The translations under genes were made by a program, and so were the position numbers. 33,699 nucleotides of DNA, taken from assembly GCA_900319405.1 (NCBI GenBank), contig ONOH01000020.1, forward strand, positions 1-33,699. The letters are read 5' to 3'. Positions 4,982-25,486 of this stretch are shown here, piece by piece (positions within the stretch are counted from its first letter, which is position 1; each line of letters starts with the position of its first letter). Under the pieces are notes generated by a model. The model saw only the letters and a program-made list of their open reading frames with translations. It searched no databases and had not been told where the DNA came from. This stretch comes from an uncultured Bacteroidales bacterium (GTDB lineage Bacteria > Bacteroidota > Bacteroidia > Bacteroidales > UBA932).

Positions 4982-7158
4982 TCTTTTCCGGTTTTGATGT
5001 AAAGCACCCCGTGAGGCGGAATTGGATAAATGGCATCCGTGGGAATGTCCTGCTGGCGCCAAAGGTCACGGACGGTCCCGGCCCTCAGGCCGATTTTGGC
5101 CAGCATACCGGCCAAAGAAACAGGAACCGTGGTCTCGTTCAAGTTGAAGATGCCCACGGCGTTGGTGCCATCGTAGAGGTCACGGCTCCAGATTTGCATA
5201 CCGTCCTCCACTACGTCCTGATGGGCCTGGTGGCCCAGGATGTCCTGGTTCACGGCGTTCACCTCGTTGTTACAGAGGAGGTTGAAGGTGAAATTATCAA
5301 TCAGGTCGATGGGGCAGCCGATGAGCATATTGGCGGCCAGGAGAGACCAGAGGGAGATGTGCGTGTACTGTTCGTCGGGGGTGAGACGGCTGTCATGCAG
5401 GCTGCTGCCCCAGCCCACCTTGCCCACGATGAGCATATCGGGGTCGTTCCAATGGCCGGGACCGGCATACGGATGCAGTCCGGGCTGCCGCTCAAAACCC
5501 GTGACATAGAGGGACTCCCAGGTATCCTGGATGTCGTGCGAAGTGCGCCAGGAGTTGGCATCTACAAAAGCGCCCCATTCCCAAACCTTTCCCCAACCGT
5601 ACTGGCAAAGGGAATAGAAGATGTCGCGCGGCTGGTCCCTCAGGTACTGCTGCATCTTCAGATAAGGGCGGATATACGCCGCTTCGGATTTATCCCGGCC
5701 GGCATCAAAGACTTTGGAATAGCCGCACCAGTCATATTTGAGGTAATCCACGCCCCACTCGTTCCAGACTTCGGCATCCAGCTGTTCGTGGTCCAGAGAG
5801 CCCAGATAGCCGCCGCAGGTGTGGTCTCCGGGACTGGAGTAGATGCCGAACTTCAGGCCATTGGCATGCAGATAATCGCCCAAGGCCTTCATATCCGGGA
5901 ACTTCTCGTTGGCTGCGATACGCCCCTCCGGCGTCCGAAATTCGGCCTCCCAGGCGTCGTCGATGTTCATATAACAGTAGCCATAATCGGCCAGGCCCCG
6001 GTTGATAAGGGCGGCGGCAGATGCCATCACCTTTTCCTGCGACACGCTCAAAGCCCAGCAGTTCCAACTGTTCCAGCCCATGGGCGGGGTGAGACCGATT
6101 TTGTCCTCCCCGACGCAAAGGGTAAACCGGGCCGAGGTGCTTCCCTTGGCATTGGTGGCCGTGAACACCAGCGGATAATCTCCTTCTACGGCGCAACTGC
6201 CGCTGAGTACGCCCTTGTCCGGATCCAGCACAACGCCCTCCGGAAGGCCCTCCACGGTGTATTGCATGGGCTTTTCACCCGAGAAGGCCAGGCGGAAAAT
6301 CACCGGCGAACCCGGCCGCACACCGAACACCAGCGGACCGTTGTAACGCGGCGTAGCCGGCGCCGGAGGCGTGAGGATATAGGGCGAACTAACTTCGGCC
6401 TTCAGTTCTTCCGGGAAACGGGAATCGCTGTACGTAACGGATATGCGCTTTTGCGGTGCCAAGGCGTAAGTGAACTGTTTTTCTTTCCAGGCCGACACCG
6501 TCACTTTCTGGGTTTTGGCCATTTCCGTGGCGCCGGTCATCACATCCGAAACGGTCACCCGCAAGGAACCCGCCGTTTTGACCGATGTGGTCAGCACTGC
6601 CTTGTAGCCCCCCTCTTCGGAAAGCAGGGACAGTTTGGCGAAATCTTTAAGACCGGGTTTGGTAATCCGGGCTGCTCCCCGGTAGAAACCGCCGGGGTCG
6701 CCGTAGTTATACACCCGCACGGCAATGATGTTTTCCCGGTCCCAGCGCACCCAGGAAGGATCTACGATATAGTGGCGGCGTCTGCCCCACTCGCTGGAAT
6801 AGCCATCTGGATCTTCCGGAAAGGTCCCGTCCTTTCCCACAGGATGGCCATTGAGCCAGGTTTGGTCGGAGTCGTCGATGGCGCCCAGATCCAGCATAAT
6901 GGCTTCCACCACACCCTTTTTAAGCGAAGAAGGGATCACCACATGAATCCTGTACCAGCCATAGCCGTTTGCGTAATCCACCAGCTCTTCCCAGGACTGG
7001 TTAAAAGTGACCTCCTGCCAGGAACTGTCGTCAAACGCCGGTGAGCTCCAGGCGGGGTCGTCCCCTTTCCGGAACCGTCCTCCCTCGATGGAAAGCTCCT
7101 GCGCCATAAGCGTCAGTGTCCCCCAAAGCAGGCCGAAGCATATGAGTAATCGTTTCAT
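4978..7158 (-). CDS. GH27 alpha-galactosidase-like enzyme with N-terminal jelly-roll and Ig-like domains (copy 1)
   Basis: The protein has 726 residues. The start is ATG 7158 (MKRLLICFGLLWG), which overlaps the upstream stop by 4 nt; a TTG two codons earlier is less likely. After a Sec signal peptide ending LMAQ comes a galactose-binding-like jelly roll (about 25-170; GWYRIHVVIPSSL, WLNGHPVGK), a connecting beta region, a putative Ig domain (about 265-345; GLPEGVVLDPDKGVLSG) and the GH27 barrel beginning at LTPPMGWNSWNCW. The nucleophile is D476 in YLKYDWCGY and the acid/base is D542 in WRTSHDIQDTW. The GH27 family comprises retaining alpha-galactosidases and related alpha-N-acetylgalactosaminidases or beta-L-arabinopyranosidases. 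The protein is probably periplasmic or outer-face and removes terminal side-chain sugars. It is paralogous to the gene at 14559-16742. A beta-L-arabinopyranosidase role cannot be excluded. Confidence 0.92.
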   Translation of the reverse strand: MKRLLICFGLLWGTLTLMAQELSIEGGRFRKGDDPAWSSPAFDDSSWQEVTFNQSWEELVDYANGYGWYRIHVVIPSSLKKGVVEAIMLDLGAIDDSDQTWLNGHPVGKDGTFPEDPDGYSSEWGRRRHYIVDPSWVRWDRENIIAVRVYNYGDPGGFYRGAARITKPGLKDFAKLSLLSEEGGYKAVLTTSVKTAGSLRVTVSDVMTGATEMAKTQKVTVSAWKEKQFTYALAPQKRISVTYSDSRFPEELKAEVSSPYILTPPAPATPRYNGPLVFGVRPGSPVIFRLAFSGEKPMQYTVEGLPEGVVLDPDKGVLSGSCAVEGDYPLVFTATNAKGSTSARFTLCVGEDKIGLTPPMGWNSWNCWALSVSQEKVMASAAALINRGLADYGYCYMNIDDAWEAEFRTPEGRIAANEKFPDMKALGDYLHANGLKFGIYSSPGDHTCGGYLGSLDHEQLDAEVWNEWGVDYLKYDWCGYSKVFDAGRDKSEAAYIRPYLKMQQYLRDQPRDIFYSLCQYGWGKVWEWGAFVDANSWRTSHDIQDTWESLYVTGFERQPGLHPYAGPGHWNDPDMLIVGKVGWGSSLHDSRLTPDEQYTHISLWSLLAANMLIGCPIDLIDNFTFNLLCNNEVNAVNQDILGHQAHQDVVEDGMQIWSRDLYDGTNAVGIFNLNETTVPVSLAGMLAKIGLRAGTVRDLWRQQDIPTDAIYPIPPHGVLYIKTGKE

Positions 7159-8480
7159 TGGCAATTATTTATAAATATGTTTCTTACATCCATGGCGCCA
7201 CCTTCGGACTGGATTCCGATGTATCCCTCCCGGACGGCGCAGCTGGCTTCGTTGATGAAAAAGCCGTTCAGGAATACCTTGATATTACCGTCCCGGCAGA
7301 CGAATTCAAGGGTATTCCATTCTCCCACCGGTTTTTCGTGTGACTGCGGATCAAACCGCTTCTTCCAGTAGAAAGGGCCTTCTATCCCCTCGATGGGAAT
7401 CCCGCCGAACAAGTCCCCCATATCTTTGGGCGTCATCTGCATCTGGATTCCGGCAGGCCATACTTTGTCTCCGTCCTGGAGGAAGTGGAAGATGCCGCCG
7501 TCCACTCCTTCGGGGCCGGCCCAGCGCCATTCAAGATGAAGGGTATAATGGGAGTACTTCCCTTCCGTGCGAATATAGCCGAACGGCTGTCCGCTGATAT
7601 GAAGGATGCCGTCCGAAACGGTGAAAGTTGGATCCTGTGCCTCCTCACCTTCCTTCAGGAACGGCAGCCAGCCTTCCAGATCCTTGCCGTTGAAAAGATC
7701 CGTATGGGGTTTTTCATAGACCTTGATCCAGTCTACCCGGAGTTCACAAGGCAGTTGCTCCGGATGGCTTACAGGGCCCACCCAACTTCCCGCAAGCTGG
7801 TTGGAAAGAATGAAGAAGAAGGGATAATCGGCCCAGGGGAACTGCCGGGGAACGCCTTCTATACGGGCATAGGAGAGGGTCTTTTCACCGTTGGTAAACA
7901 GGCACACGCTGTCGCGGTGGATTTCGGCGGCATAGATGTTCCATCCCTCCTTGTCGATAGGGTGGGTGGCCGAATGGGCAGGCTCATTGTTGCCGTCCAG
8001 CGTATAGCGCGAATGCAGGGTCTGATAGGCGATGTCTTCGGCGTTGAGATGTTCCATGATGTCCACCTCGGCATATTCGGGCGCCTGCAGGGAACAGTCC
8101 GGCATAAGCCACAAGGCGGGCCAGAAACCATCTGCGCAGTTGAATTTGGCCTTGATTTCAATCCTTGCCTCGCGGAAGGATTTCTTGCCGTGGCTGTGGA
8201 CGCCACCGGTAACGAAAGGCGTCTGGTCGCCCTCGGCGCCCTTCTTTCCCAGAAGGACCAGTTCTCCGTTTTCAATAAAGGCCAGGTCCGGGCGGAGGGA
8301 CATCATATCATTCCAGTCCGACGGGCCCTTTTCCACCCTTGACCACACGCAGGTGTCTATCTCCGGGCCGTCGAAGTTTTCCTCCCATAAAAGGTTCCAC
8401 TCACTTTTCTCCACGGGGGCCGAACAGGCGGCTAATGCCATAACGGCGGCGGCAAAAGCAGCAAATTCTCTTTTTCTCAT
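7155..8480 (-). CDS. GH16 endo-glycanase / DUF1080 (3-keto-disaccharide hydrolase family) fusion lipoprotein
   Basis: The protein has 441 residues. The ATG at 8480 begins MRKREFAAFAAAVMALAACS, a lipoprotein signal with a clear lipobox; the longer frame to 8597 runs into the upstream gene and lacks a signal. Residues about 30-250 are a GH16 jelly roll with the laminarinase-type active site E138-V-D140-I-M-E143 (EVDIMEHLN) and the flanking GFWPALWLMP motif. From about residue 255 (DLFNGKDLEGWLPF) to the end is a DUF1080 domain, annotated in databases as 3-keto-disaccharide hydrolase, itself a concanavalin-like sandwich. GH16 cleaves internal beta-1,3/1,4 bonds of glucans or galactans; DUF1080 enzymes act on glycosides oxidised at C3. 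The gene starts 10 nt after the metallophosphoesterase and overlaps the following GH27 start by 4 nt. The DUF1080 part could instead serve as a binding domain. Confidence 0.88.
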   Translation of the reverse strand: MRKREFAAFAAAVMALAACSAPVEKSEWNLLWEENFDGPEIDTCVWSRVEKGPSDWNDMMSLRPDLAFIENGELVLLGKKGAEGDQTPFVTGGVHSHGKKSFREARIEIKAKFNCADGFWPALWLMPDCSLQAPEYAEVDIMEHLNAEDIAYQTLHSRYTLDGNNEPAHSATHPIDKEGWNIYAAEIHRDSVCLFTNGEKTLSYARIEGVPRQFPWADYPFFFILSNQLAGSWVGPVSHPEQLPCELRVDWIKVYEKPHTDLFNGKDLEGWLPFLKEGEEAQDPTFTVSDGILHISGQPFGYIRTEGKYSHYTLHLEWRWAGPEGVDGGIFHFLQDGDKVWPAGIQMQMTPKDMGDLFGGIPIEGIEGPFYWKKRFDPQSHEKPVGEWNTLEFVCRDGNIKVFLNGFFINEASCAVREGYIGIQSEGGAMDVRNIFINNCQ

Positions 8481-8490
8481 ATCGTAATCC

Positions 8491-9522
8491 TTACTTAAAA
8501 TGAACCACTTGGGCATCACCGTTGTAGGTGGCCCCCACGGTATATTGGATGGCGGTGGGAGAGAATCGCTCCTCGAAGAAGCGGTGCATGTGGCCACAGA
8601 GGATACCCTTCAGAAGCGGCTGTTCCTTGAGCCAGGCAATGAAGCGGAGCGTAGGTTCATCGGAGCGCTGCTGCACCTTGCGGTATCGCCACTCCTCCCC
8701 GGCAGGGTAGGTAACGCCGGGCTCGTAGGTTTCCGTAAGCTCCAGGGGAACGCCGGCCAGATAGGCGCAGCGCCCTTCCATCCGCTCTATCTCATCCTTG
8801 TAGTATTCCGGCGTATAAAGCGGCACGTGAATCAGGAGGATGACGGGCAGGCCCTTGGCCACTTCGGCCTTCATAAGCTCCAGCTGCCGATCCGTAAAGT
8901 TGTAGTACACGTCGTCCACGGCCACGAAATTCACTCCGCCGATGACCCGGCTGGCAAAGGACAGGTCGTTGGGGAAAGCATCCCGGACGGCCTTGTAGCT
9001 ATCGGCCTTGTATGCCTCATCTTCCCTGGCCTCGCCCACATACTTGGAGTATTCGTGGTTGCCGGCGCACACGAACCAATCCCCTTCCATCATATGCTTG
9101 GCATCGCAGTCCAGGTTTGCTTCCGAAACAAAATCGTGCATATCACCGGTGTGCATCAGGTACATCCCGTTTTCCCGCGCGATCCGGATGGCTTCGTCCA
9201 GGTAATGCTCGCCGGCGTTCATCCAGCGGCTGCGGGAGGCCGCCAGTTTGATTTTCCGTTCGTCGTCCCGGTTATCGGCCCTGGCAATATGCGTATCGGA
9301 AACGTGCAGTACGTCAAAGGGCTTTTTCAGGCCGATCTCAATGGTGATTTCCTTGATGTTCAGCGGATCAAAAGCTTCCACATCCCGGCCGATGCGCTCC
9401 GGGAACTGCTGCCACCCCTTTACCAGCGGACCCTTCTTGGCCTCCTGGGGAACCGAGCAGCCACCCAGGGCTACCCCTGCCGCGGCCGCGCCGGATACTT
9501 TGATGAAGTCTCTTCGTTTCAT
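8491..9522 (-). CDS. Calcineurin-like metallophosphoesterase, Tat-type lipoprotein
   Basis: The protein has 343 residues and starts at ATG 9522, overlapping the GH127 stop by 4 nt. The N-terminus MKRRDFIKVSG has a twin-arginine pattern followed by a lipobox ending at C22 (VALGGC), so the protein is probably exported folded and lipid-anchored. The dinuclear-metal signature of the family is complete: D76 and H78 (SDTHIA), D127 (TGDMHD), N155-H156 (AGNHE), a histidine in LLIHVP, and H311/H313 (CGHMHR). Family members hydrolyse phosphomonoesters or phosphodiesters on many substrates. The position between GH127 and GH16 suggests that it acts on a phosphorylated glycan or product, or scavenges phosphate, but nothing in the sequence fixes the substrate. 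Confidence 0.88.
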   Translation of the reverse strand: MKRRDFIKVSGAAAAGVALGGCSVPQEAKKGPLVKGWQQFPERIGRDVEAFDPLNIKEITIEIGLKKPFDVLHVSDTHIARADNRDDERKIKLAASRSRWMNAGEHYLDEAIRIARENGMYLMHTGDMHDFVSEANLDCDAKHMMEGDWFVCAGNHEYSKYVGEAREDEAYKADSYKAVRDAFPNDLSFASRVIGGVNFVAVDDVYYNFTDRQLELMKAEVAKGLPVILLIHVPLYTPEYYKDEIERMEGRCAYLAGVPLELTETYEPGVTYPAGEEWRYRKVQQRSDEPTLRFIAWLKEQPLLKGILCGHMHRFFEERFSPTAIQYTVGATYNGDAQVVHFK

Positions 9523-11513
9523 TCGGTCTCGAATTTATGCCCGGCCAGGGCTTTCATAATGGGTTCGCCGCCGTTCACGGCCGTCCAGTTGTAGCCGTCG
9601 TAACTATACGCCACAAACAGGCCTGCATTCTGGCGGGAATTGTCAAAATAGGTGAGCACATAGGCCTGCTTTTCCTGCTGGTACGGCACCCATACTTTCA
9701 TCTTGCCGGCTTCGCGGTTGTCCCAGGCATAATACGGGATGTAGGTAAGGACATTCTCCGGCGTACGGGCCGATATCTCCACGATGCCGCCCAACTTGCC
9801 AGGCAGCGTCTCCGTCACCAATTCAGCACCCTCTGTGAGCGTCAGTTTGTCAAAGTCCACGGGATTGTCGGCCTCTTCCAGGCAATAAACCACGGGACCG
9901 CGCTGGATGGCCCTGAGGCCTGCATCTTCCTTCACGCGGGGGTCTGCGGCTACCACTTCCACAGGCATATCCAGGTTCAGCCGGATCCGGTCTCCGTCCT
10001 TCCAGGGGCCTTCCAGCACGGCATACCCCTTTTCCACCGGCGCTTCCACCGCCTGGCCGTTTACGGTGAGCGTGTAAGCCTTGCACCAGGCGGGAATGCG
10101 CAGGCGCAATTCCTTGCGCAGACGTCGCTCCAGGCCCAGGGTGAGGGTCACGGTGCCCTCCCAGGGATACGCCGTCTCCTGCGTAAGGGTGATGCCCGCT
10201 CCAATATCGGCCTTGCTGCCCATATACAGGTTTACCCAGACGGCCTTATCCGACACAGCGTACACATAATTGCCGATGGAAGGCAGGAAGCGACAGATCT
10301 GGCTGGGACAGCAGGCGCAGCCGTACCACTCTTGCCGATGGTGCCCACCCAGCGATTCCAGCGGATTCACGTAGAAAAAGCGGTCGCCCGAGAGCGAGAT
10401 GCCCGCCAGGGCACCATTGTAAAGAGCGCGCTCCAGCACATCGGCATACTTGCCGTCACCGGTAAACTGCCCCATGCGCCAGTTCCAGAGCACCATCCCC
10501 ACAGAAGCGCAGGTTTCGCAATAGGCCGTAAGGTTGGGCAGGCTGTAGTCGGTGGTGAAACCTTCATTGCTGGCCGACTGGCCGATGCCGCCCGTGATAT
10601 ACATGTTGCGCTCCACCACATCTTCCCACAGCCGGTCCAGGGCTGCCATATAGCCTTGATCGCCCGTGTAGGAGGCCACGTCGGCCATGCCGCAGTACAG
10701 GTACATGGAGCGTACGGCGTGGCCGGAGATTTCGGCCATCTCCCGCACCGGAACCTCGTCCTGGTAATAGTGCGTGGGCCATACGCGTTCGTCCCCATAG
10801 GAGCCGTAACCGTGGCCCCGCTCGTTCAGGAGCCAGTCGGCAAAATCCAGGTACTTCTTTTCGCCGGTGGTCCGGGACAGCTTCACCAGGGCCAGTTCGA
10901 TCTCCTCATGCCCCGGCACCCAGTGGCGTTTACCGGGACCGAAGACCGACATCATGTGGTCGGCCATGCGGATGCACACGTCCAGCAGTTTGCGTTTGCC
11001 GGTGACCTGATAGTAGGCCACGCCCGCCTCGATCATGTGACCGGCGCAGTACATTTCGTGCCGGTCCATGTCTTTCCAGCGATTTTCCAACCCGGTAAGC
11101 GTATAGAATGTGTTGATATAGCCATCCGGCTGCTGGGCTGCGGCGAATTTGTCTATCCATTCATCGCACTTGGCTTCCAGCTCCGGGTCCGGATGGTTCT
11201 GCAGGGAATAGGCCATGCCCTCCAGGGCCTTGTACACGTCGGAATCGTCAAAGAAGATGCCCGAGTGCTTTCCGCGGCCCTTCGCCGCATTCTCGTAGTT
11301 GCGGATGCGGTCGGTCCGGTTCTCGATCTGGTCGATGCACACGGCCAGGGTCACGTCCTTGTGAGCCTGCAGCCGAGGCGACCAGAAGCCGTCCTGGATC
11401 TGCACCCGGGAAAAAGGAAGCGGGGTAATGAATCTCAGGCTTTCCTCCTGCCGGGAGGAACAGGCCGACAGCAAGACGGCGGCCGCTGCCGCAAAGGGAA
11501 ACAACGTTCTCAT
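9519..11513 (-). CDS. GH127 beta-L-arabinofuranosidase family (DUF1680) lipoprotein
   Basis: The protein has 664 residues, with lipoprotein signal MRTLFPFAAAAAVLLSACSS. The mature N-terminus has the family opening PLPFSRVQIQDGFWSPRL, followed by an alpha/alpha barrel and C-terminal beta-sandwiches. The unusual zinc-cysteine active site is intact by comparison with the characterised Bifidobacterium longum HypBA1: acid/base E317 (SNEGF), zinc ligands E333 and C335 (YCETC), and C399/C401/C402 (YGCACCP), with C401 the expected nucleophile. The 16-residue spacing between E317 and E333 matches HypBA1. GH127 enzymes release beta-L-arabinofuranose, and some Bacteroides members act on rare acidic sugars in rhamnogalacturonan II. 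The gene lies between GH106 and the metallophosphoesterase with 4-nt overlaps on both sides, so it is tightly coupled. The choice between arabinose and a rare sugar is open. Confidence 0.92.
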   Translation of the reverse strand: MRTLFPFAAAAAVLLSACSSRQEESLRFITPLPFSRVQIQDGFWSPRLQAHKDVTLAVCIDQIENRTDRIRNYENAAKGRGKHSGIFFDDSDVYKALEGMAYSLQNHPDPELEAKCDEWIDKFAAAQQPDGYINTFYTLTGLENRWKDMDRHEMYCAGHMIEAGVAYYQVTGKRKLLDVCIRMADHMMSVFGPGKRHWVPGHEEIELALVKLSRTTGEKKYLDFADWLLNERGHGYGSYGDERVWPTHYYQDEVPVREMAEISGHAVRSMYLYCGMADVASYTGDQGYMAALDRLWEDVVERNMYITGGIGQSASNEGFTTDYSLPNLTAYCETCASVGMVLWNWRMGQFTGDGKYADVLERALYNGALAGISLSGDRFFYVNPLESLGGHHRQEWYGCACCPSQICRFLPSIGNYVYAVSDKAVWVNLYMGSKADIGAGITLTQETAYPWEGTVTLTLGLERRLRKELRLRIPAWCKAYTLTVNGQAVEAPVEKGYAVLEGPWKDGDRIRLNLDMPVEVVAADPRVKEDAGLRAIQRGPVVYCLEEADNPVDFDKLTLTEGAELVTETLPGKLGGIVEISARTPENVLTYIPYYAWDNREAGKMKVWVPYQQEKQAYVLTYFDNSRQNAGLFVAYSYDGYNWTAVNGGEPIMKALAGHKFETE

Positions 11514-14500
11514 TTCTTTTTGAATTCCAGGGTTACGGGGCCCAGGAGGCCGGAAGTCTGCAGGGAATCCTCCGCCTCGAAAGGACGGTTGTTGGTCCAG
11601 GTGCCGCGCTGCGCCTCCGGCAGGCGCTCATCGGCGATAAGGCGGTTCTGCCAATTGTTGTACACAGTAATCTCCAGACGGTTTTCCCCTTCCTTCACCA
11701 GGGGACCGACGGCAAGGCGATAAGGATACGTCCAGACGCCTCCGGCCTCCTTTCCGTTCACCTTCACGCTGGCCAGGACCATCACCTCGCCAAGGTTCAG
11801 GCTCAGGTCTTCGGGGACGTTTTCCAGGTAGAAAGTGCTTGTGTACCGGGCGTTTCCGGAGTAGTGTCTGACGGCAGGGTCTTCGCTGCAGGCCCAGTCG
11901 GAGAGGCTTTCAAAAGTGCGCGTAAAACCCGGATTTCCGGCCGAAGGTGCAAATTCCACGGTCCAGGGACCGGGGAGAACAACAGTTTCGATTTTCCCGT
12001 TGGGACAAGAGGGGGCTTTGGCCTTTTTCCGGAAGACGACAAAAACGCTTTGGAGACGGTCCAGGGACAGGACCTCTCCGTCCCAGCCCCAGGTCTGTCC
12101 GGTAAGCGGATCCCATATTTCCGCCTTCAGGGCGGGGTTCACGCGGAAAGAAGGGCGCAGTTGTACAGGGCGGTCCTCCTGGTTGGACACGAAATAGATT
12201 TCCCCTTCGCTTCCCAGGGTGCGGTGGATAAAGAGCAGACGCCCCTCCCCCGAATAAGTGAAGTCGGGACGGAAGCCCAGATCGTCCAGCACCCGGTCCA
12301 GCGGAGTGCCGGCAGGATAGACCAGGCCTTTCCCTCCGCCGTTCCAGATTTTTTCGGCCAGTTTTTTCACCTTTTCATCGGCCGTGAAGATACCGTGCTG
12401 CATGCTGGGGGAACGCAGGGGCGCGTCTCCCACGATGCACAGGCCCTCTTCCACAAAACGGGCGATGGTCTCCAGCAGCTCCGGACGCATGGTCTCCTGC
12501 CGGGGCAGCACCAGCACCCGGTACTCCATCCCGCTGTCCAGGACCAGCCGGCCGTCTTCCACATGCGCGCGGTGCCGGAGGACATCGGCATTGATATAGT
12601 CGAAGCTGTACCCCTCCGGTACGGGCGGGTCGGTCACGCCCGTCATCTTGGGCACATCCTCGCCGATGAAATACGCCACATCGGCCACATAACGTCCCTG
12701 CTGCAGGAGGAAGTTGCAGCGCTTGAGGTACTCCACAAAAGCGCCCATTCCTTCGAACCAACTGTTGTTGCGGTTGAATTCATTGCCGAACCAGGCGCTG
12801 CGGCCCGGCTGGCGGTCATCGGGCTGCTGGATATACAGGTGCAGGAGGGTGGCGTTGATGCCTTCGCAGAAGAAGCGGTCGGTCCGCTGCTTCATCAGGC
12901 GCGGATAGCGGTGAAAGGCCGGGCCGCCGGAGGTGCAGGATTCGGCCCAGATTCTATTTTTGCCATAAATGTGGCCGCAGGACGAGGCGGCCCGGTTTTC
13001 GATGTCTCCCAGTTCCCCTTCGCTCCAGAACTCTCCGCCAATCTGGTCGCTCTGGCTGCCATACAGGAGGAATTCGCCGGGAAAGCCCCAGTGGCCGTAG
13101 CACTCCAGCCAGGTTTGCAGGCCGTCGGCATTGGCTTTTTCCCGCAAGCCGCCCACGTAATCGTAGGCCACGCGGTCGGCCACCAGGCGGCGAAGGTCCC
13201 AGAGGAAACGCTCGCTCTCCTCCATCGTACTCACCACCAGGCCCTGCAAAACGGGAAGATAGGGACGGGGATTGTATCCGTATGTCTTTTCAAACACCTT
13301 GGCCATATCGTCGGTCCAGTTCTGGCCGCCGGTTTCGTAACTGTCTTCCACCACCACCTTCCAGGACTTGCGGTCCTGGGGAGGAATGCGGCGAAGAAGG
13401 TCTCCTACAAAAGCGTCGTAATGCTCCGCGACATAGCGGCGGCTCATCTTGTCCACCTCCAGTCCGGTGCCTTCGCGGACGGCGGGAGAATTGGAGACGC
13501 CGGTGCTTTCCATATAACTGACGAGCACCGTCCAGCGGCCATCAGGCGCCTTCCAGCGGAGTTCTCCATCCACCAGGCAATCCGTGATATCTCGCTGAAA
13601 CACCGGATCCACGCAGTAGCGGTAGTTTACGTACTCGGGATGGTCCCACAGATAGGCGTCCCACAGGGGAAGCGGGTCCTGGAACATCTTGGCCAGGCTC
13701 TTCTCGGCATAGTGGGGCAGAAAGGCCCGTTGGGACAGCGTAACCGTGAAACTGCCCTCGGAAGGGGTTTCCAGCCTCAGCTCAAACGTACCGCTTTCTC
13801 CGGTAGGGAAACTCTCCACCCAGGGAGCCAGGGGCCGGAAGCCCACATTGGGGTTCAGGTTGTGCCGATCGAAGGTAAAGGCAGCCACCTCCCGGCCGTT
13901 GCAACGGAGCGTCACGGGCGTCCGCTGCTCCCCGTCGCTTTCCAGCACAAGGCTGTGCACCGGAAAGGGAACCTGCATTCTGAGAACAGCCGGAACGCCC
14001 CGGCGGGTGGTGAGCTGCCAGCTTCGGGAAGCTCCCTCCACCGTGCGGAAGGCCTGGATGTCCACAATCCGGTCCGGCGGCACATCCGGCAGGGCCAGCC
14101 GCTGTTCGCAGCCATTGCCCTCCACCTGCTGGAAATGTCCCTCGAGGTATTTCATACTCTGCTCCGGGCTTATCCAGGGCCCGCCCGATTGGCTCCAGCC
14201 CGGGCAGTTGAAAAGTCCTATCTCTATCCCCAGTTCTCCGGCGGTTTTCATTGCCTGGTGGGTTATTTCCAGCCACTCATCCGAGAAAAGGGGAACGGGA
14301 CCGTCGCCCTCGTCAATCCCCTGATTGCCGATGAAAGCGCGGTTGATGCCCACCCGCTTCATCGCCTCCAGGTCTTTCACCACCCCCTCCCTGGAAATGT
14401 AATTGTCCATCCAGTACCAGTAAACGGCCGTCCGGACAGAGTCGGGAATGTTCCGGAATCCCTCTTCTATCTGTGCAATCCCCACGTTTGCATCCCTGCC

Positions 14501-14557
14501 GCAGGAGAGCGGCAGAAGCAGCAGGGACAATCCCAGCAAAAGCAGCGGCTTTTTCAT
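11510..14557 (-). CDS. GH106-type alpha-L-rhamnosidase lipoprotein
   Basis: The protein has 1015 residues. The signal MKKPLLLLGLSLLLLPLSC ends in a lipobox. The N-terminal region carries the GH106 hallmarks VYWYWMDNYISREGVVKDLE and FNCPGWSQSGGPWISPEQ (about residues 115-135), and the central region has further conserved acids in VVEDSYETGGQNW (E404, E408) and WAESCTSGGPAFH (E539), which are candidates for the catalytic pair. A C-terminal jelly roll (about 890-1015; VKVNGKEAGGVWTYPYRL) is also typical. GH106 enzymes are inverting alpha-L-rhamnosidases, including ones acting on pectic rhamnose in rhamnogalacturonan II. The length is normal for the family. The gene begins 1 nt after the upstream GH27 stop and its TGA overlaps the GH127 ATG, so the three are almost certainly cotranslated. 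Linkage specificity cannot be read from the sequence. Confidence 0.88.
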   Translation of the reverse strand: MKKPLLLLGLSLLLLPLSCGRDANVGIAQIEEGFRNIPDSVRTAVYWYWMDNYISREGVVKDLEAMKRVGINRAFIGNQGIDEGDGPVPLFSDEWLEITHQAMKTAGELGIEIGLFNCPGWSQSGGPWISPEQSMKYLEGHFQQVEGNGCEQRLALPDVPPDRIVDIQAFRTVEGASRSWQLTTRRGVPAVLRMQVPFPVHSLVLESDGEQRTPVTLRCNGREVAAFTFDRHNLNPNVGFRPLAPWVESFPTGESGTFELRLETPSEGSFTVTLSQRAFLPHYAEKSLAKMFQDPLPLWDAYLWDHPEYVNYRYCVDPVFQRDITDCLVDGELRWKAPDGRWTVLVSYMESTGVSNSPAVREGTGLEVDKMSRRYVAEHYDAFVGDLLRRIPPQDRKSWKVVVEDSYETGGQNWTDDMAKVFEKTYGYNPRPYLPVLQGLVVSTMEESERFLWDLRRLVADRVAYDYVGGLREKANADGLQTWLECYGHWGFPGEFLLYGSQSDQIGGEFWSEGELGDIENRAASSCGHIYGKNRIWAESCTSGGPAFHRYPRLMKQRTDRFFCEGINATLLHLYIQQPDDRQPGRSAWFGNEFNRNNSWFEGMGAFVEYLKRCNFLLQQGRYVADVAYFIGEDVPKMTGVTDPPVPEGYSFDYINADVLRHRAHVEDGRLVLDSGMEYRVLVLPRQETMRPELLETIARFVEEGLCIVGDAPLRSPSMQHGIFTADEKVKKLAEKIWNGGGKGLVYPAGTPLDRVLDDLGFRPDFTYSGEGRLLFIHRTLGSEGEIYFVSNQEDRPVQLRPSFRVNPALKAEIWDPLTGQTWGWDGEVLSLDRLQSVFVVFRKKAKAPSCPNGKIETVVLPGPWTVEFAPSAGNPGFTRTFESLSDWACSEDPAVRHYSGNARYTSTFYLENVPEDLSLNLGEVMVLASVKVNGKEAGGVWTYPYRLAVGPLVKEGENRLEITVYNNWQNRLIADERLPEAQRGTWTNNRPFEAEDSLQTSGLLGPVTLEFKKK

Positions 14558-14558
14558 T

Positions 14559-16742
14559 TTACTTCACTTTCACGTACAGGACACCGTGTGAAGGAATCTG
14601 GTACACGGCATCGGTAGGGATGTCTTTTTGGCGCCAGAGATCGCGTACGGTATCGGCTTCGATGCCGATTTTCTCCAAGGCTCCCTTGAGCAGGGTTGGC
14701 ATAACGGCATCGTTCAGATTGAAGATGCCCACGGCCTTGCCGCCGTCATAGAGTTCGCGGCTCCAGATCTGCACGTTGTCCTCCACCACGTCCTGGTGGG
14801 CCTGTTTTCCCAGGATATCCTGGTTCACGGCATTCACCTCGTTGTTGCAAAGGAGGTTGAAAGTGAAATCGTCAATCTGGTCCAACGGGCAACCGATGAG
14901 CATATTGGCGGCCAGCAGCGACCAAAGGGAAATGTGGGTGTACTGCTCGTCCGGGGTGAGGCGGCTGTCCCATAGACGGTCGCTCCAGCCCACCTTGCCC
15001 ACCACCAGCATATCGGGGTCGTTCCAATGGCCGGGGCCGGCATAGGGATGAAGCCCGGCCTGCCGGACAAAACCGATGTCATAGAGGGAAGCCCAGGTAT
15101 CATTGATGTCTCCTGTGGTACGCCAGGAGTTGGCATCGACATAGGCGCCCCACTCCCACACATTGGCCATACCGTACTGGCAAAGGGAATAGAAAATATC
15201 GCGGGGCTGCTCACGAAGATACTGCTGCATCTTCACATAGGGACGCAGGTAGGCGGCGGAAGAGTGGTCGCTGCTGGCGCTGAAAACCTTGTTGTAGCCG
15301 CACCAGTCGTATTTGAGATAGTCGATGCCCCATTCGTTCCAGGTTTTGGCATCCTGCTCCTCGTGGTCCAGGGAGCCCAGATAGCCGCCGCAGGTGTGGC
15401 TTCCGGGGCTGGAATAGATGCCCAGGCGGAGTCCGTTTCCGTGCAGCCAGTCGGCCAGGGACTTCATATCGGGGAACTTCTCGTTGGTGAGGATGGTGCC
15501 GTCAGGGGCACGGTGATCGGCCTCCCAGGCATCGTCGATGTTCATATAACTGTAGCCATAGTCAGCCAGGCCGCGGTTGATGAGGGCGACGGCCGATGCC
15601 ATCACCTTCTCCTGCGACACGCTGGTGCCCCAGCAGTTCCAGGAATTCCAGCCCATCGGCGGAGTAAGGGCGATTCTTCCGCCCACCTTGAGGGTAAAGG
15701 AGGCGCGGGTGCTGCCCTTGGCATTGGTGGCCGTAAAGATAAGCGGATAGTCGCCTTCTTCTTTGACGCTGCCGCTGAGAACCCCTTTCTCCGGATCCAG
15801 CACGACACCTTCGGGAAGCCCTTCCACCTTGTAGGTCATAGGCTTCTCACCGGAGAAAGCCAGGCGGAAGATCACCGGGGAGCCGGGCCGTACACCAAAT
15901 ACCAGCGGTCCGTTGTAACGGGGCGTAGCCGGAGCCGGCGGGGTGAGGATGTAGGGGGCGCATACATTGGCTTCCAGGTAATCGTCAAACCTGTTGTCCC
16001 GATAGATGAAGACCAGGCGGATCCCCTCCCGGAGAGTCTGGGAGAAAGTGAGGTCGCTCTTGCCGTCCAGACGGACTTTCCAAGTCTTGGAAGACAGGAT
16101 TTCATCCGTATGGACATCCTTTATCTGCGCCTCCACCGTGCCGCTGGTCTTAATACGGCTGCTGACGGTGGCCACGCATTCCTGATTCTTGCGTTCCAGG
16201 AAGATGCTTACATAGTCTTTCAGCTCCGGTTTGGCGATATAGACGGGATGCTCATAGAATCCTCCCGGTTCACCACCGTTGTATACCCGGACGGCAATGA
16301 TGTTTTCCTTGTCCCAGCGAACCCGTTCGGGGGATACCACATAACGGCGGGGGGTATCCCACTTTCCTTCGAAACCGCCTTCCTCCTTGGGGAAGCGGCC
16401 CGTCTTCCCCACCAGATGCCCGTTGAGATAAGTCTCATCGGTGTCGTCGATGGGCCCCATATCCAAAAGTATATCTCCGGTGACGCCCCCTTTCAGGGAC
16501 GAAGGAATCACCGTATGGAGGCGGTACCAGCCAAAATTGTTGGGGTTCTTGACACCCTGCTGGGTCCAGTTTTTATCCAAGGCAAGCATCTGCCAGGAAC
16601 TGTCTTCAAAATCAGCCTTCTGCCAGGAGGGGTTGTCTCCCTTGCAGAAACGGCCGCTTTCTACAGTGACAGATTGAGCGCCGGCCGGCTGTGCCATTAC
16701 AAGTGCGGTCACCAGCAGCAGGACGGAAAAAATCTTTTTCAT
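14559..16742 (-). CDS. GH27 alpha-galactosidase-like enzyme with N-terminal jelly-roll and Ig-like domains (copy 2)
   Basis: The protein has 727 residues starting at ATG 16742, with Sec signal MKKIFSVLLLVTALVMAQPA. It has the same architecture as the gene at 4978-7158: jelly roll, connecting sandwich, Ig-like domain, GH27 barrel starting LTPPMGWNSWNCW, C-terminal sandwich. The nucleophile is D479 (YLKYDWCGY) and the acid/base is D545 (WRTTGDINDTW). The barrel is closely similar to copy 1, while the N-terminal jelly roll is clearly more divergent, which suggests different substrate recognition. This is the first gene after a 157-bp gap with an inverted repeat, so it probably opens a transcription unit, although read-through from unit 2 is possible. 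It is likely to remove terminal alpha-galactose or a beta-L-arabinopyranose. Confidence 0.92.
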   Translation of the reverse strand: MKKIFSVLLLVTALVMAQPAGAQSVTVESGRFCKGDNPSWQKADFEDSSWQMLALDKNWTQQGVKNPNNFGWYRLHTVIPSSLKGGVTGDILLDMGPIDDTDETYLNGHLVGKTGRFPKEEGGFEGKWDTPRRYVVSPERVRWDKENIIAVRVYNGGEPGGFYEHPVYIAKPELKDYVSIFLERKNQECVATVSSRIKTSGTVEAQIKDVHTDEILSSKTWKVRLDGKSDLTFSQTLREGIRLVFIYRDNRFDDYLEANVCAPYILTPPAPATPRYNGPLVFGVRPGSPVIFRLAFSGEKPMTYKVEGLPEGVVLDPEKGVLSGSVKEEGDYPLIFTATNAKGSTRASFTLKVGGRIALTPPMGWNSWNCWGTSVSQEKVMASAVALINRGLADYGYSYMNIDDAWEADHRAPDGTILTNEKFPDMKSLADWLHGNGLRLGIYSSPGSHTCGGYLGSLDHEEQDAKTWNEWGIDYLKYDWCGYNKVFSASSDHSSAAYLRPYVKMQQYLREQPRDIFYSLCQYGMANVWEWGAYVDANSWRTTGDINDTWASLYDIGFVRQAGLHPYAGPGHWNDPDMLVVGKVGWSDRLWDSRLTPDEQYTHISLWSLLAANMLIGCPLDQIDDFTFNLLCNNEVNAVNQDILGKQAHQDVVEDNVQIWSRELYDGGKAVGIFNLNDAVMPTLLKGALEKIGIEADTVRDLWRQKDIPTDAVYQIPSHGVLYVKVK

Positions 16743-16778
16743 AACAAGACAATAGTTAATGTTTTACAAGATAGACAG

Positions 16779-16841
16779 TTTCAGGGATTGCATCTCTTTT
16801 GTTTTCGCTAAAAAAACTTTGAGAAATGACAATCCCTGAAA
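16779..16841. repeat. Perfect 12-bp inverted repeat with 39-bp spacer
   Basis: TTTCAGGGATTG at 16779-16790 is matched exactly by its reverse complement CAATCCCTGAAA at 16830-16841. The centres of the arms are 51 bp apart, close to five helical turns, so two regulator subunits or dimers could sit on the same face of the DNA. It lies 37 to 99 bp upstream of the GH27 ATG, where an operator is expected. A loop of 39 nt makes an RNA terminator unlikely. I did not notice another copy in the window. Confidence 0.7.
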
Positions 16842-16875
16842 TTGCCTTTTTTATGAAAAGGGGGCAGCGGGAATC

Positions 16876-16895
16876 TTTCCGCCACGAAGCGGAAA
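16876..16895 (-). other. Short stem-loop just after the HEAT-DUF1080 stop codon
   Basis: A perfect 7-bp stem (TTTCCGC/GCGGAAA, 6-nt loop) begins 4 nt after the stop on the minus strand. The U-rich tract precedes the stem rather than following it, so it is a poor intrinsic terminator. It may be a 3'-end stabilising or processing hairpin that separates unit 2 from unit 3. Confidence 0.35.
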
Positions 16896-16899
16896 AAAA

Positions 16900-19377
16900 T
16901 TACTTCTTTTCTCCCAAATCCAGAATTCGCACATTCCGGATTTTAAGCCCTGAACCGTGACCGCAGAAAGAAATGTAGCCCTTGCGGTTGAAAAGCCCCG
17001 GATGCGCACGGCCATCGACAGTGGTCTTCCGGCCGCCCGCGGTCACCTTCCGGACATCGGCGTCCGTAATCAGCTCTCCGTTCACCGTCACCTTAATACG
17101 GTCTCCTTCCACCACGATCTCTTCCGTGCTCCATTCTCCCAAAGGTTTGTGTTTCACGCGTTTGGCAGGAACGATTCCGTAGATGGAACCGTGGGTCTGG
17201 TAATCTTTCAGCCAGCCGGCATAGGCCGGAGCGTCGTGGTCCAGAATCTGCAGTTCGCACATCCCCTCATAGGCGGCATCCACATTTTCGGGGGTACGGA
17301 TGCCCACGCCGTTGTTCACGCCCTCTTCCAGGAAACAGAACTCGAAACGAAAGACAAAGTTTCGGTACTGCTTGTTGGTGTACAGGTTTCCCGTGCTGCC
17401 GTAACGGGCCGACACCAGGATGGCCCCGTTCACCACGGTATAGCCTTCCTTGTCGCCGTGCCACTTGGAAAGGTCGCTTCCGTCAAAGAGCATTTCGAAG
17501 CCCCGGGCCTTCTCTTCGGCAGTGAGCTCGCTCCGCGGGGCGGGCTTTGCCTCTGCGAGCATCTTGCCGATCTCGTCCACTGCATAGCCGTCATCGGCCA
17601 GGCCACGGGAACGATAGAGGTCGGCGGCTTTCTCCAGGCTGCACTTGAAGTCATCGTAATTGATTTCCTCCTTGCACTTGGACGCAATCTTGCGGACAGC
17701 ATCGGCCGCAGCATAACGCACAGCATCGGCATTGTCACCCAGATACTTGCCGACCAGAAGGAAACTCTTCATCAGCGGCATATCGCCCAATTTTCCAAGG
17801 GCCGACACCTTCACGGCCGGATCGGATGCCCGCGAAAGCACTTCGGCGAAGCCCAGCCGCTTCACGTCATCATTCTTCTCGAACTGCGAGAGAAGGGTCG
17901 CGTAACGGTCCAGGTACTTGTCGGCCTCCTTTCCTCCTTCACGGGCCGCAGCGAGCACATCTTCCATCACGGAAGGGACCTGCATCCCAAAGAGGGCTTC
18001 ACGGGCCGATGCATCCTGCTGCGCCGCCTCCCGGAGCACCTTCGCCGCCGCTTCGCTATTACCTGCGGCAAGGACCGGATAGAACTTCTCCTTGTGAACG
18101 GCGGACGAAAGATATCCCTTCAGCTTTTCTGCTTGAGCTTCAGGCGTTTCCGCATGAAGCGCATAGACAAGGGCTTTCTGGAGGGGCTCCGTGAAGGGTG
18201 CGGCGGAAGCATCCAGCAGGGCGGCAATCCCGTCCGCCTGCGCCACGGTGGCCATTCCGTCCAGGGCTTTTGCGGCAAACAGATTACCGGACGCAGCCAG
18301 TTTCTGCACCTTCGGGGCCAGATCCACCAGATGACGCTTGGATGCCAGGCGGAGAAGGTTCTCCAACTGCAAGCCGTTCACAGGGGCATCCAGCGCCTTA
18401 GACACCGGATCGGTCACGTTTCCCTCAAAAGTGGCCAGGGCGGCAAAGGCGGCATCGGCCTTGTCGCCGGAAAGGGCGGCCACCAGCGCTTCGGCCGCTT
18501 TCCCGCCACCGAGGATACCGGTGGTGCGGATGGCCGTCTCTCCCAGTTCGTCCGGGCTCCAAATGCTGCCCAGAACAAGGGGAAGGGCGCTCTTGACTTT
18601 CTTCAGGCCAATCCAGTTGAGCACATCCGTCCGGGCCTCGCCGGAAAGGGTGGCATACGCTTTTTCCAGCGCTTTTGCCAGGGTCTCCCCATCATATTTT
18701 TCCGCAGCGGAGAGGGCGGCATTGCGGTAGGGACGGTCACCGGTCCTGAGGGCATTCACCACCAGCGTAGGATCCGGAGCAGACCGTTCGATGACGGTCT
18801 TCACGGCAGCGCAGCGGATACCGGAATTGTCGTTCTTCAGAAGGCTCCTGGCCGCCTTCACGGCGTCCTTGTCGCTGAAGTTGTTCAGAAGGACCATATA
18901 GTCCGGCAAAGACTGGCTCTTCAAATACTTGGCAGAGGCCTTGCTGCCGATAACGCCAAGAGTCCGGGTGATGGCCTTCTTCTCGTCCACCTGCGCATTT
19001 TGGGCCCATTGAAGCAGGTACGGTTCGGCCTCACGGAGCCCCCGGTCGGCCACGGCGCCGCACAGGAGCGCCTTGTCGGCTCCTTCCGTGCGGATCAGGT
19101 CCATCAGCGCCTTATCCCCGCCGGGAAGCGCCGCCAGCGCGGCAATGGACATAGGAGCGCAATAGGCATCGTTCACATAAAGAAGGTAAAGGCCGATGTC
19201 GGACTCCTGGGCCAGCGGATATAGTTGCTGGAGAAGGAAAGAACGGGCAACAGCGTCATCGCACTGCAGGATTTCCCGCTTCAGGGCATCCCGTCTGGCG
19301 AAATCCTCCGCCGGTTGTCCAAAAAGGCTTCCTGCCACAATCAAAAGAGCAGAAAACAGGGCTATCATCTTTTTCAT
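16900..19377 (-). CDS. HEAT-repeat protein with C-terminal DUF1080 (3-keto-disaccharide hydrolase family)
   Basis: The protein has 825 residues. The ATG at 19377 opens MKKMIALFSALLIVAGSLFG, a Sec signal peptide; a TTG four codons upstream is possible but less likely. Residues about 30-610 are alanine- and lysine-rich helical repeats of HEAT type (for example SGIRCAAVKTVIERSA and VRYAAADAVRKIASK), probably a solenoid. Residues about 620-825 are a DUF1080 domain starting FEMLFDGSDLSKWHG and containing NNGVGIRTPE and LQILDHDAPAYAG. DUF1080 proteins are concanavalin-like and several are reported to cleave 3-keto-glycosides. The gene lies 12 nt after a Tat-exported Gfo/Idh oxidoreductase, the enzyme type that makes 3-keto sugars, so the pair probably works in sequence outside the cytoplasm. 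The HEAT part may hold a polymer or a partner enzyme. Confidence 0.88.
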   Translation of the reverse strand: MKKMIALFSALLIVAGSLFGQPAEDFARRDALKREILQCDDAVARSFLLQQLYPLAQESDIGLYLLYVNDAYCAPMSIAALAALPGGDKALMDLIRTEGADKALLCGAVADRGLREAEPYLLQWAQNAQVDEKKAITRTLGVIGSKASAKYLKSQSLPDYMVLLNNFSDKDAVKAARSLLKNDNSGIRCAAVKTVIERSAPDPTLVVNALRTGDRPYRNAALSAAEKYDGETLAKALEKAYATLSGEARTDVLNWIGLKKVKSALPLVLGSIWSPDELGETAIRTTGILGGGKAAEALVAALSGDKADAAFAALATFEGNVTDPVSKALDAPVNGLQLENLLRLASKRHLVDLAPKVQKLAASGNLFAAKALDGMATVAQADGIAALLDASAAPFTEPLQKALVYALHAETPEAQAEKLKGYLSSAVHKEKFYPVLAAGNSEAAAKVLREAAQQDASAREALFGMQVPSVMEDVLAAAREGGKEADKYLDRYATLLSQFEKNDDVKRLGFAEVLSRASDPAVKVSALGKLGDMPLMKSFLLVGKYLGDNADAVRYAAADAVRKIASKCKEEINYDDFKCSLEKAADLYRSRGLADDGYAVDEIGKMLAEAKPAPRSELTAEEKARGFEMLFDGSDLSKWHGDKEGYTVVNGAILVSARYGSTGNLYTNKQYRNFVFRFEFCFLEEGVNNGVGIRTPENVDAAYEGMCELQILDHDAPAYAGWLKDYQTHGSIYGIVPAKRVKHKPLGEWSTEEIVVEGDRIKVTVNGELITDADVRKVTAGGRKTTVDGRAHPGLFNRKGYISFCGHGSGLKIRNVRILDLGEKK

Positions 19378-19389
19378 AAGGCACTGCAA

Positions 19390-20694
19390 TTAGATCATCG
19401 AAGCCCAAGGGGCACGCATAGGTTGATGGATGAGGTGATTGGCGGCATCGTCGCCGACAAAGCGCTGGGTGAGCGGGTCGAAGTGCAGCGTCCGGCCCAG
19501 ACGCAGGGCGCAGGCGCCCATATTCACCACCGTGGCGCTGTGATGGCCGATGATCTCGTCCAGGGCGAAGTGCTGGCGGTTGCGCACGCACTCCAGGAAA
19601 TCGGTATGGCGGGGAGCCGGGTCGGGCAGGGAGTTGATGACATCCCAGACATGGGGGATAGTACACTCGAAGCCCTTGTACACTTTGCCCAGCGGGCCTT
19701 CGATGTAAGGGACTTTTCCGGGGCTCTCGTACCCCTCACCTTCTAGGATAATGCGGCAGCCGTCGTCATAGGTGTAGGTGACGCTGCGCCAGGTGCCCAC
19801 GGCATCGGGATGCTGCGGCGGGGCGTCCACCTCCACCTTCACCGGGAAAGTGTCATCCTTGCCCAGAATGTACTGGACAGGGTCTATGTAATGCTGTCCC
19901 ATATCTCCCAGGCCGCCCGACTCGTAGTCCCAGTAGCCGCGGAAGGTTCCGTGCACCCGGTGCGGATGATAGGGCTTGTACGGGGCGGGACCCAGCCAGA
20001 GGTCGTAGTCCAGTTCGGCCGGAACGGGCTGGGGAACCAGGTCCTCGCGGCCCGTCCAGTAGAACTTCCAGGCGAAACCCGTCGCCCCCGAAATGCGGAC
20101 GGTGAGCGGCCAGCCCAGCAATCCGCTGGAAACCAGCTTCTTGAGAGGCTCCACCGTGGTACCCAGGCCATAGAAAGTATCCTTGAAACGGAACCAGGTG
20201 TCCAGGCGGAAGATGCGGCCGTACCTGGCTACGGCCTCCACCACTTTCTGCCCTTCCCCGATGGTTCGGGTCATCGGTTTCTCGCAGAAAATGTCCTTGC
20301 CGGCCCGGGCGGCCTCGACGGCCTGGATGCCGTGCCAGTGGGACGGTGTGGCAATGTGGACGATGTCAACGTTGGGGTCGTGAATGAGGTCGCGGAAATC
20401 GTGATAGGCGGCGAGGGTGGTGCCAAATCGTTCCTTTCCAGCTTCCAGGGCCCGGTTGAGGTGGTTCCGGTCCACATCGCAGACAGCCACGAGGCGGCAC
20501 TTTTCGTCACTGGCAAAGTGCAGGTTGGACATCCCGATACCGCCTACGCCAATGATTCCCCGCGTAAGCTGGTCGCTGGGGGCCACATACTTTTTGTTGC
20601 CCCCCAGGGCGCCAAATACATTTCTGGGCAGGATGGTCGCGGCCACGATGCCGGCCCCCGCTTTCTTGAGGAATGATCTTCTTGAATCTGCCAT
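19390..20694 (-). CDS. Gfo/Idh/MocA-family oxidoreductase with Tat signal
   Basis: The protein has 434 residues. The N-terminus MADSRRSFLKKAG is a twin-arginine signal, implying export of a folded, cofactor-loaded enzyme. A Rossmann nucleotide-binding fold follows, with GVGGIG (49-54), then the acidic residue of VCDVD, HIATPSHWHG and the catalytic-lysine motif EKP (K139). The C-terminal alpha/beta domain contains GGLGDMGQHYIDP. Family members oxidise or reduce sugar hydroxyls with NAD(P); some exported ones act as C3-glycoside oxidases or as GH109-like retaining glycosidases with bound NAD. Beside a DUF1080 gene, C3 oxidation of a glycoside is the best inference. The start is 4 nt after the GH78 stop, and the HEAT-DUF1080 gene follows 12 nt downstream. 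The electron acceptor is not encoded here. Confidence 0.9.
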   Translation of the reverse strand: MADSRRSFLKKAGAGIVAATILPRNVFGALGGNKKYVAPSDQLTRGIIGVGGIGMSNLHFASDEKCRLVAVCDVDRNHLNRALEAGKERFGTTLAAYHDFRDLIHDPNVDIVHIATPSHWHGIQAVEAARAGKDIFCEKPMTRTIGEGQKVVEAVARYGRIFRLDTWFRFKDTFYGLGTTVEPLKKLVSSGLLGWPLTVRISGATGFAWKFYWTGREDLVPQPVPAELDYDLWLGPAPYKPYHPHRVHGTFRGYWDYESGGLGDMGQHYIDPVQYILGKDDTFPVKVEVDAPPQHPDAVGTWRSVTYTYDDGCRIILEGEGYESPGKVPYIEGPLGKVYKGFECTIPHVWDVINSLPDPAPRHTDFLECVRNRQHFALDEIIGHHSATVVNMGACALRLGRTLHFDPLTQRFVGDDAANHLIHQPMRAPWASMI

Positions 20695-25319: not shown

Positions 25320-25330
25320 AGAGCCATCTG

Positions 25331-25353
25331 TCATTTCAAAATGAATCGGATTC
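25331..25353. promoter_or_regulatory. Two overlapping palindromes at the start of the GH9 transcript, possible operator
   Basis: TCATTT-CA-AAATGA (25331-25344) and GAATC-G-GATTC (25343-25353) lie side by side, immediately downstream of the -7 box and upstream of the GH9 ATG. The position fits repressor or activator binding, or a short hairpin in the 5' leader. No protein is tied to it by sequence alone. Confidence 0.35.
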
Positions 25354-25356
25354 TTA

Positions 25357-25388
25357 CAAATATACCCATTTTTTGCCATTGGAACAAG
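25357..25388 (-). promoter_or_regulatory. Bacteroidota sigma-ABfr-type promoter for the GH9 operon
   Basis: On the minus strand, CTTG (25388-25385) and TATATTTG (25364-25357) are separated by 20 nt. This matches the Bacteroidota consensus of a -33 TTG/TTTG and a -7 TAnnTTTG at 19-21 nt spacing. Transcription would start roughly 30 nt before the GH9 ATG at 25319. The surrounding DNA is the most AT-rich stretch in the region. Confidence 0.82.
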
Positions 25389-25430
25389 AGCCCGCGGCCT
25401 TTTGCCGGAAGCGGGGTGCCGGGTATGGAA

Positions 25431-25467: not shown

Positions 25468-25486
25468 CTTTCTTCCGGAAGGAATT

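What the first reader, a model, noticed from the sequence alone, without database searches (positions are those of the whole stretch)
7155..20694. Oxidative (3-keto-glycoside) cleavage set built into a hydrolytic glycan locus
A Tat-exported Gfo/Idh oxidoreductase (19390-20694), an exported HEAT-DUF1080 protein directly after it, and a GH16-DUF1080 fusion in the next unit all sit among nine or more classical glycosidase modules. Exported Gfo/Idh plus DUF1080 is the known pattern for oxidising a sugar at C3 and then cleaving the keto-glycoside, as in the Bacteroides thetaiotaomicron BT2156-BT2160 type of operon, which also has a LacI/AraC-like regulator. Here it would act together with GH78, GH9 and GH16 on the same substrate. 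The proposal that oxidation handles bonds the GHs cannot cut is inference.
Basis: partly seen in the sequence, partly recalled or inferred. Interest (0 to 1): 0.72.

Follow-up and report, generated by a model that had tools for sequence, protein, structure and literature searches.

The report
Oxidative sugar-cleaving gene pair in glycosidase cluster
A rumen bacterium carries, inside a large set of plant-fibre-cutting genes, a conserved gene pair that looks built to cut sugar bonds by first oxidising the sugar; the chemistry is already known, but this version of the pair and its place in such a cluster are new in detail.

Summary
A Tat-type Gfo/Idh (19390-20694) abuts an exported HEAT-DUF1080 protein (16900-19389) among eleven glycosidase modules. 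The reading is partly supported. For it: Gfo/Idh Lys/Asp/His in 85 of 85 orthologues, no GH109 loop, best structural match a glucoside-3-dehydrogenase; the HEAT-DUF1080 keeps the His that I map to H275 of BT2157; the two genes are adjacent almost wherever found. Against it: the Gfo/Idh scores 143 bits on the BT_2158 equivalog model (cut-off 750), so it is a relative, not a member; the GH16-DUF1080 lacks the matching His, Glu, Asp and Asn and should leave the set; and the pair often sits beside housekeeping genes elsewhere, even in 2 of the 7 closest named loci, so it is a portable module. New here: the same genome has a real BT2158-type operon on another contig, and in a sister species that operon lies 17-21 kb from the pair in one glycosidase supercluster. 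Best reading: C3 oxidation outside the cytoplasm, then elimination/hydration; substrate unproven, probably pectin-derived glycosides or oligosaccharides. No activity is shown.

The parts
19390..20694 (-). Tat-type Gfo/Idh oxidoreductase, proposed glycoside C3 oxidase (K139, D264, H268)
16900..19389 (-). exported HEAT solenoid + C-terminal DUF1080, proposed 3-keto-glycoside eliminase/hydratase (N692, E712, D717, H811); likely start at the ATG near 19377
   Evidence: Pfam; residues; model pLDDT 89.7; fold match to DUF1080 structures
7155..8597 (-). GH16-DUF1080 fusion (likely start near 8480, lipoprotein-like); GH16 motif intact, DUF1080 site degenerate (D, Q, P, E at the Asn, Glu, Asp, His positions); not counted as part of the oxidative module
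20699..23029 (-). GH78 alpha-L-rhamnosidase directly upstream of the pair
   Evidence: Pfam; 4-nt gap
23019..25826 (-). GH9 with CelD_N; the sister species has an apiosidase-GH9 fusion in its place
25810..30225 (-). GH78-GH3 fusion
30232..31128 (-). type I phosphodiesterase-like protein, lipoprotein-like start
31144..32706 (-). metalloenzyme-superfamily protein with PA14
32703..33698 (-). LacI-type sensor + AraC HTH regulator, cut by the contig end
14559..16742 (-). GH27 with He_PIG domain (copy a)
11510..14557 (-). GH106 alpha-L-rhamnosidase
9519..11513 (-). GH127
8491..9522 (-). Tat-type metallophosphoesterase
4978..7164 (-). GH27 with He_PIG domain (copy b)
2438..5062 (-). WbsX domain + GH43 fusion
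3..2426 (-). GH28 (rhamnogalacturonidase-like) + CE15, cut by the contig end

Best explanation
The two-gene unit 16900-20694 is a secreted oxidative deglycosylation module. The Gfo/Idh is exported folded through Tat, probably with bound NAD(H), and oxidises C3 of a glycosyl unit. [quoted passage not shown] The HEAT solenoid is a scaffold with an unknown partner. The pair is a portable module found in many Bacteroidales contexts; in this lineage it lies in a rhamnosidase-rich glycosidase supercluster with a LacI/AraC-type regulator. There it probably finishes small glycosides or oligosaccharides released from pectin-like glycans. Shown: gene content, adjacency, conserved residues, folds, genomic contexts. 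Inferred: the reactions, the cofactor state, the HEAT role, the substrate. The GH16-DUF1080 fusion is left out of the module.
Confidence: 0.6

Rival explanations
1. The pair does oxidise and cleave glycosides, but a substrate unrelated to this glycosidase locus (a general glycoside of the periplasm); its position here is incidental.
For: 42 of 80 named loci carry at least one ribosomal-protein, uvrC, PBP1A-like, miaA or topoisomerase neighbour cluster within the stretch held (clusters named from one representative each), 2 of them among the seven closest loci (L029, L030). Immediate upstream neighbours outside window-like loci: 6 of 53 in glycosidase families at E<=1e-6. Downstream: thioredoxin-like in 14 of 40, glycosidase 1 of 40 among the 25 of 27 families shown.
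Against: In the window the pair is packed into the glycosidase unit (4-nt and 0-nt gaps); five of the seven closest loci (L026, L027, L028, L031, L032) have window-type glycosidase matches nearby; the sister supercluster adds the full canonical operon. Distribution is patchy (33 of 149 genomes in the family draw, 29 of 295 in the order draw, own genome included), which suits catabolism better than housekeeping.
Confidence: 0.23
2. The Gfo/Idh is an NAD enzyme with another role, and the DUF1080 is an ordinary glycanase or a carbohydrate-binding domain.
Against: His811 and the Asn/Glu/Asp set match the BT2157-type proteins and are near-invariant; the match to AL3 leads other Gfo/Idh entries by more than 5 Z units; GGHGG is absent.
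Confidence: 0.13
3. The GH16-DUF1080 fusion is also part of the oxidative set.
For: It passes the Pfam family cut-off (125.5 bits against 26.8) and lies on the same strand in the next unit. Loss of the His alone might leave elimination.
Against: Asp, Gln, Pro and Glu stand at the conserved Asn, Glu, Asp and His positions. A relative (L121) also has QSEG in place of the His motif, though it keeps Asn and Glu. No match to this fusion was seen in the sister stretch searched, G295:C3 18-76 kb.
Confidence: 0.07

Closest known systems
B. thetaiotaomicron BT2156-BT2160 operon / Alistipes AL-series glucoside 3-oxidation enzymes
   Same: Exported Gfo/Idh plus DUF1080; same conserved residues; 8tdf/8tdh (AL3) are the top sequence and fold matches of the Gfo/Idh and BT2157-type structures are among the fold matches of the DUF1080. 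A true relative of that operon is in this genome on contig C21 (BT_2158_fam 815.1 bits). BT2156-58 are listed as sugar phosphate isomerase, DUF1080, Gfo/Idh in PMC10434189 (passage).
   Different: The window Gfo/Idh is not an equivalog (142.9 of 750 bits), its DUF1080 partner is fused to a HEAT solenoid, and the TIM-barrel and second Gfo/Idh genes are absent from the window.
Caulobacter LacABC + DUF1080 lactose route (PMC9007349, passages read)
   Same: Oxidation outside the cytoplasm followed by a DUF1080 protein (there a proposal from mutant fitness data).
   Different: The oxidase there is LacABC, not Gfo/Idh; no large glycosidase cluster is described in the passages seen.
GH109 NAD-dependent glycosidases
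   Different: No GGHGG loop and a weaker structural match than AL3.
Bacteroidales pectin (RG-I/RG-II) utilisation loci (gene lists recalled)
   Same: GH28, GH106, GH127, GH78, GH43; GH28 540.6 bits on the BT4153 rhamnogalacturonidase model, GH127 454.1 bits on the aceric acid hydrolase model, GH106 193.9 bits on the BT4145 model.
   Different: All below the equivalog cut-offs (650, 950, 1300); no SusD on the window contig.

Membership tests
BT_2158 glycoside 3-dehydrogenase (NCBIfam NF058561) | Score at or above the equivalog cut-off (750 bits) | tested here: not met
   142.9 bits; own-genome C21 copy scores 815.1
BT_2158 glycoside 3-dehydrogenase (NCBIfam NF058561) | Gfo/Idh Lys/Asp/His and Tat-type signal | tested here: met
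   (85 of 85; also present in the C21 equivalog)
BT_2158 glycoside 3-dehydrogenase (NCBIfam NF058561) | C3 oxidation of glycosides | not testable with these tools
   needs an assay
DUF1080 3-keto-glycoside eliminase/hydratase (BT2157 type) | PF06439 above cut-off | tested here: met
   HEAT-DUF1080 122.7 bits against 26.8; GH16-DUF1080 125.5
DUF1080 3-keto-glycoside eliminase/hydratase (BT2157 type) | His equivalent to H275 and conserved Asn/Glu/Asp, in HEAT-DUF1080 | tested here: met
   mapping of H275 is my own; role of Asn/Glu/Asp inferred from conservation only
DUF1080 3-keto-glycoside eliminase/hydratase (BT2157 type) | The same residues in the GH16-fused DUF1080 | tested here: not met
   D, Q, P, E at the four positions
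DUF1080 3-keto-glycoside eliminase/hydratase (BT2157 type) | Elimination/hydration activity | not testable with these tools
   needs an assay
BT2156-BT2160-type operon | Two Gfo/Idh, DUF1080 and TIM barrel together | tested here: not met
   window has one Gfo/Idh and no TIM barrel of that kind; C21 has the set; make-up of the reference operon partly recalled, BT2156-58
GH109 | GGHGG loop | tested here: not met
   motif from a reference title seen
SusCD-type polysaccharide utilisation locus | SusD near the glycosidases | tested here: inconclusive
   no SusD on contig C10, but the contig is cut at both ends; SusC was not searched

The most novel reading that the evidence does not exclude
The pair is a second, separate oxidative deglycosylation line in Bacteroidales, distinct from BT2156-BT2160: the HEAT solenoid docks the DUF1080 eliminase/hydratase to the Tat-exported oxidase so that the labile 3-keto glycoside is channelled, and lineages with large rhamnosidase clusters have drawn both lines into one supercluster to clear linkages that their hydrolases leave.
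Probability: 0.2. Interest if true: 0.7.

Novelty: new variant of a known kind. Interest (0 to 1): 0.47.

Why it matters
Oxidative glycan cleavage is a recent addition to the glycosidase picture. A conserved, portable two-gene version that family models do not name as such, and that sits with a full canonical operon inside one glycosidase supercluster in a sister species, gives a concrete and testable case of oxidative and hydrolytic cleavage side by side in rumen bacteria.

Tried and rejected
Rejected: GH16-DUF1080 as part of the set. Rejected: GH109 identity. Left open: RG-I or RG-II as substrate; family scores lean to pectin but none meets an equivalog cut-off, and the nearest solved GH106 and GH127 structures do not settle it. 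The Gfo/Idh model was weak. Promoters and signal peptides were not scanned with a program; SusC and a Gfo/Idh tree were not done.

Literature: ten searches (the last found nothing). I saw passages only, of PMC10628242, PMC9007349, PMC11501099, PMC11003636, PMC13273386, PMC10881899 and PMC10434189. None of those passages describes a HEAT-DUF1080/Gfo-Idh pair; that is not proof that none is in print. The 2024 Nature paper on the alternative pathway is recalled only and is not held.

Rows dropped before counts: the neighbour scans used 53 of 61 upstream and 40 of 49 downstream ORFs found; left out were window-like loci (upstream L026, L027, L028, L031, L032; downstream L026, L027, L029, L031, L032, of which L029 is itself a uvrC-type locus) and short ORFs. 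The downstream table shows 25 of 27 families. HEAT and/or DUF1080 matches include partial ones (12 of 80). One domain of each tandem DUF1080 protein of this genome also has Gln and Pro at the Glu and Asp positions while keeping the His, so those two positions vary within the family.
Full report
Setting. The window is a whole contig (C10) of an assembly of 2.13 Mb in 59 contigs, 89% complete. Named relatives of its Gfo/Idh are Bacteroidales assemblies, mostly from rumen and other gut samples by their titles, the nearest at 97% identity. I took sixteen large minus-strand ORFs as genes; they run almost without gaps, the one larger gap being 157 nt after the HEAT-DUF1080 gene. Both contig ends cut a gene (the regulator and the GH28-CE15 protein).

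Observation. The Gfo/Idh has a Tat motif and the genome has TatC. The two DUF1080 proteins have signal-peptide or lipoprotein-like starts by eye.

Is the pair real? Of 86 loci with the Gfo/Idh at more than 55% identity (the window included), 80 have a HEAT and/or DUF1080 match immediately downstream on the same strand, 68 full-length and 12 partial. Of the six misses, L034 and L060 end at the contig edge, three gain the partner with longer DNA, and one (G278) is a true miss. Four distant loci (about 60-69% identity, other families) have a HEAT-DUF1080 protein of 1132-1166 aa there (L111-L114), with two DUF1080 domains in the two that I scanned (L111, L112); the window protein has one. Six further loci gave four with the partner, one cut by the contig end, one without. 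Over the same 294 other genomes of the class, 5 hold the Gfo/Idh orthologue, 6 the DUF1080 type, 4 both (Fisher p 2.4e-7).

Context elsewhere. Clusters around the 80 named loci include ribosomal proteins S3 and L4, UvrC, MiaA, a PBP and a topoisomerase (one representative each scanned); 42 of 80 loci hold at least one. Immediate upstream neighbours outside window-like loci include 6 in glycosidase families of 53; downstream, 14 of 40 are thioredoxin-like and 1 is a fucosidase. Of the seven named loci at 90% identity or more, five (L026, L027, L028, L031, L032) have window-type glycosidases nearby and two (L029, L030) have a second Gfo/Idh, a thioredoxin-like gene and uvrC. The Gfo/Idh is patchy: 33 of 149 genomes in the family draw and 29 of 295 in the order draw, own genome included. 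So the pair is a portable module, and glycosidase company is a feature of part of the lineage.

The canonical operon. Contig C21 of the same genome holds, in a row, GH78, a Gfo/Idh, a BT_2158 equivalog (815.1 bits, cut-off 750), a DUF1080 close to BT2157-type structures (E about 1e-130) and a TIM-barrel protein. In the sister assembly (L032, G295:C3, 105,889 bases) one same-strand run from 18 to 75 kb carries homologues of most window glycosidases, the pair (46849-50628), and then this operon: GH78 from 68088 (17 kb on), BT2158 at 71811-73283 (21 kb on, 96% identical to C21), DUF1080, TIM barrel to 75024. C21 1861-32525 matches C3 58912-90912 at 80-86% nucleotide identity in its main blocks. 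No close match to the window's GH78 (best 28.6%) or to the GH16-DUF1080 was seen in the 18-76 kb stretch, and both window GH27 genes match one sister gene best. The sister run also has an apiosidase-GH9 fusion, GH92, GH2 and further GH78/GH106. Thus oxidative and hydrolytic genes are linked in this lineage more strongly than the window alone shows. Whether C10 and C21 join in the window's own genome is unknown.

Substrate. GH28 scores 540.6 bits on the BT4153 rhamnogalacturonidase model (cut-off 650), GH127 454.1 on the aceric acid hydrolase model (950), GH106 193.9 on BT4145 (1300). This points to pectin-type glycans, as inference. SusD is absent from the contig, which is cut at both ends.

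Mechanism. Oxidation at C3 by the Gfo/Idh, then elimination and hydration by the HEAT-DUF1080; the 3-keto sugar would then need a reductase, possibly from the C21 operon. All of these steps are inferred from relatives.

Against the reading. No activity is shown; the Gfo/Idh fails the equivalog cut-off; another DUF1080 protein is reported as an endo-glycanase (PMC10881899, PMC9007349, passages); BT2157 and BT2158 deletions in B. theta gave no growth defect on raffinose-family sugars (PMC11501099, passage).

Verdict. A real, conserved, probably oxidative pair of a known chemical kind, in a variant architecture and a notable genomic setting: a new variant of a known kind.

Noticed in passing
window 23019-25826: The GH9 protein lacks the apiosidase half that the sister species' 1524-aa homologue has (only residues 771-1520 of that protein match the window), and no apiosidase was found in this 89%-complete assembly.
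   Followed up: partly
window 4978-7164 and 14559-16742: Two GH27 genes with the same domain order look like a duplication (a 300-nt stretch 83% identical, spacing about 9.57 kb).
   Followed up: partly
window 8491-9522: A second Tat-type protein, a metallophosphoesterase, sits in the glycosidase run; close homologues (79%) lie near the pair in L026 and L027.
   Followed up: no
L107 (G000:C15) 4759-9989: Another oxidative-looking set: tandem DUF1080 protein, two Gfo/Idh and an ApbE-like flavin transferase side by side.
   Followed up: partly
L111-L114: Distant orthologues of the HEAT-DUF1080 are longer; the two scanned carry two DUF1080 domains, and the first domain in all four has Asp and Gln at the conserved Asn and Glu.
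   Followed up: partly
L055 5536-6609 and similar loci, downstream of the pair: A thioredoxin-like (AhpC-TSA/Redoxin) protein often follows the pair (14 of 40 downstream neighbours scanned).
   Followed up: no
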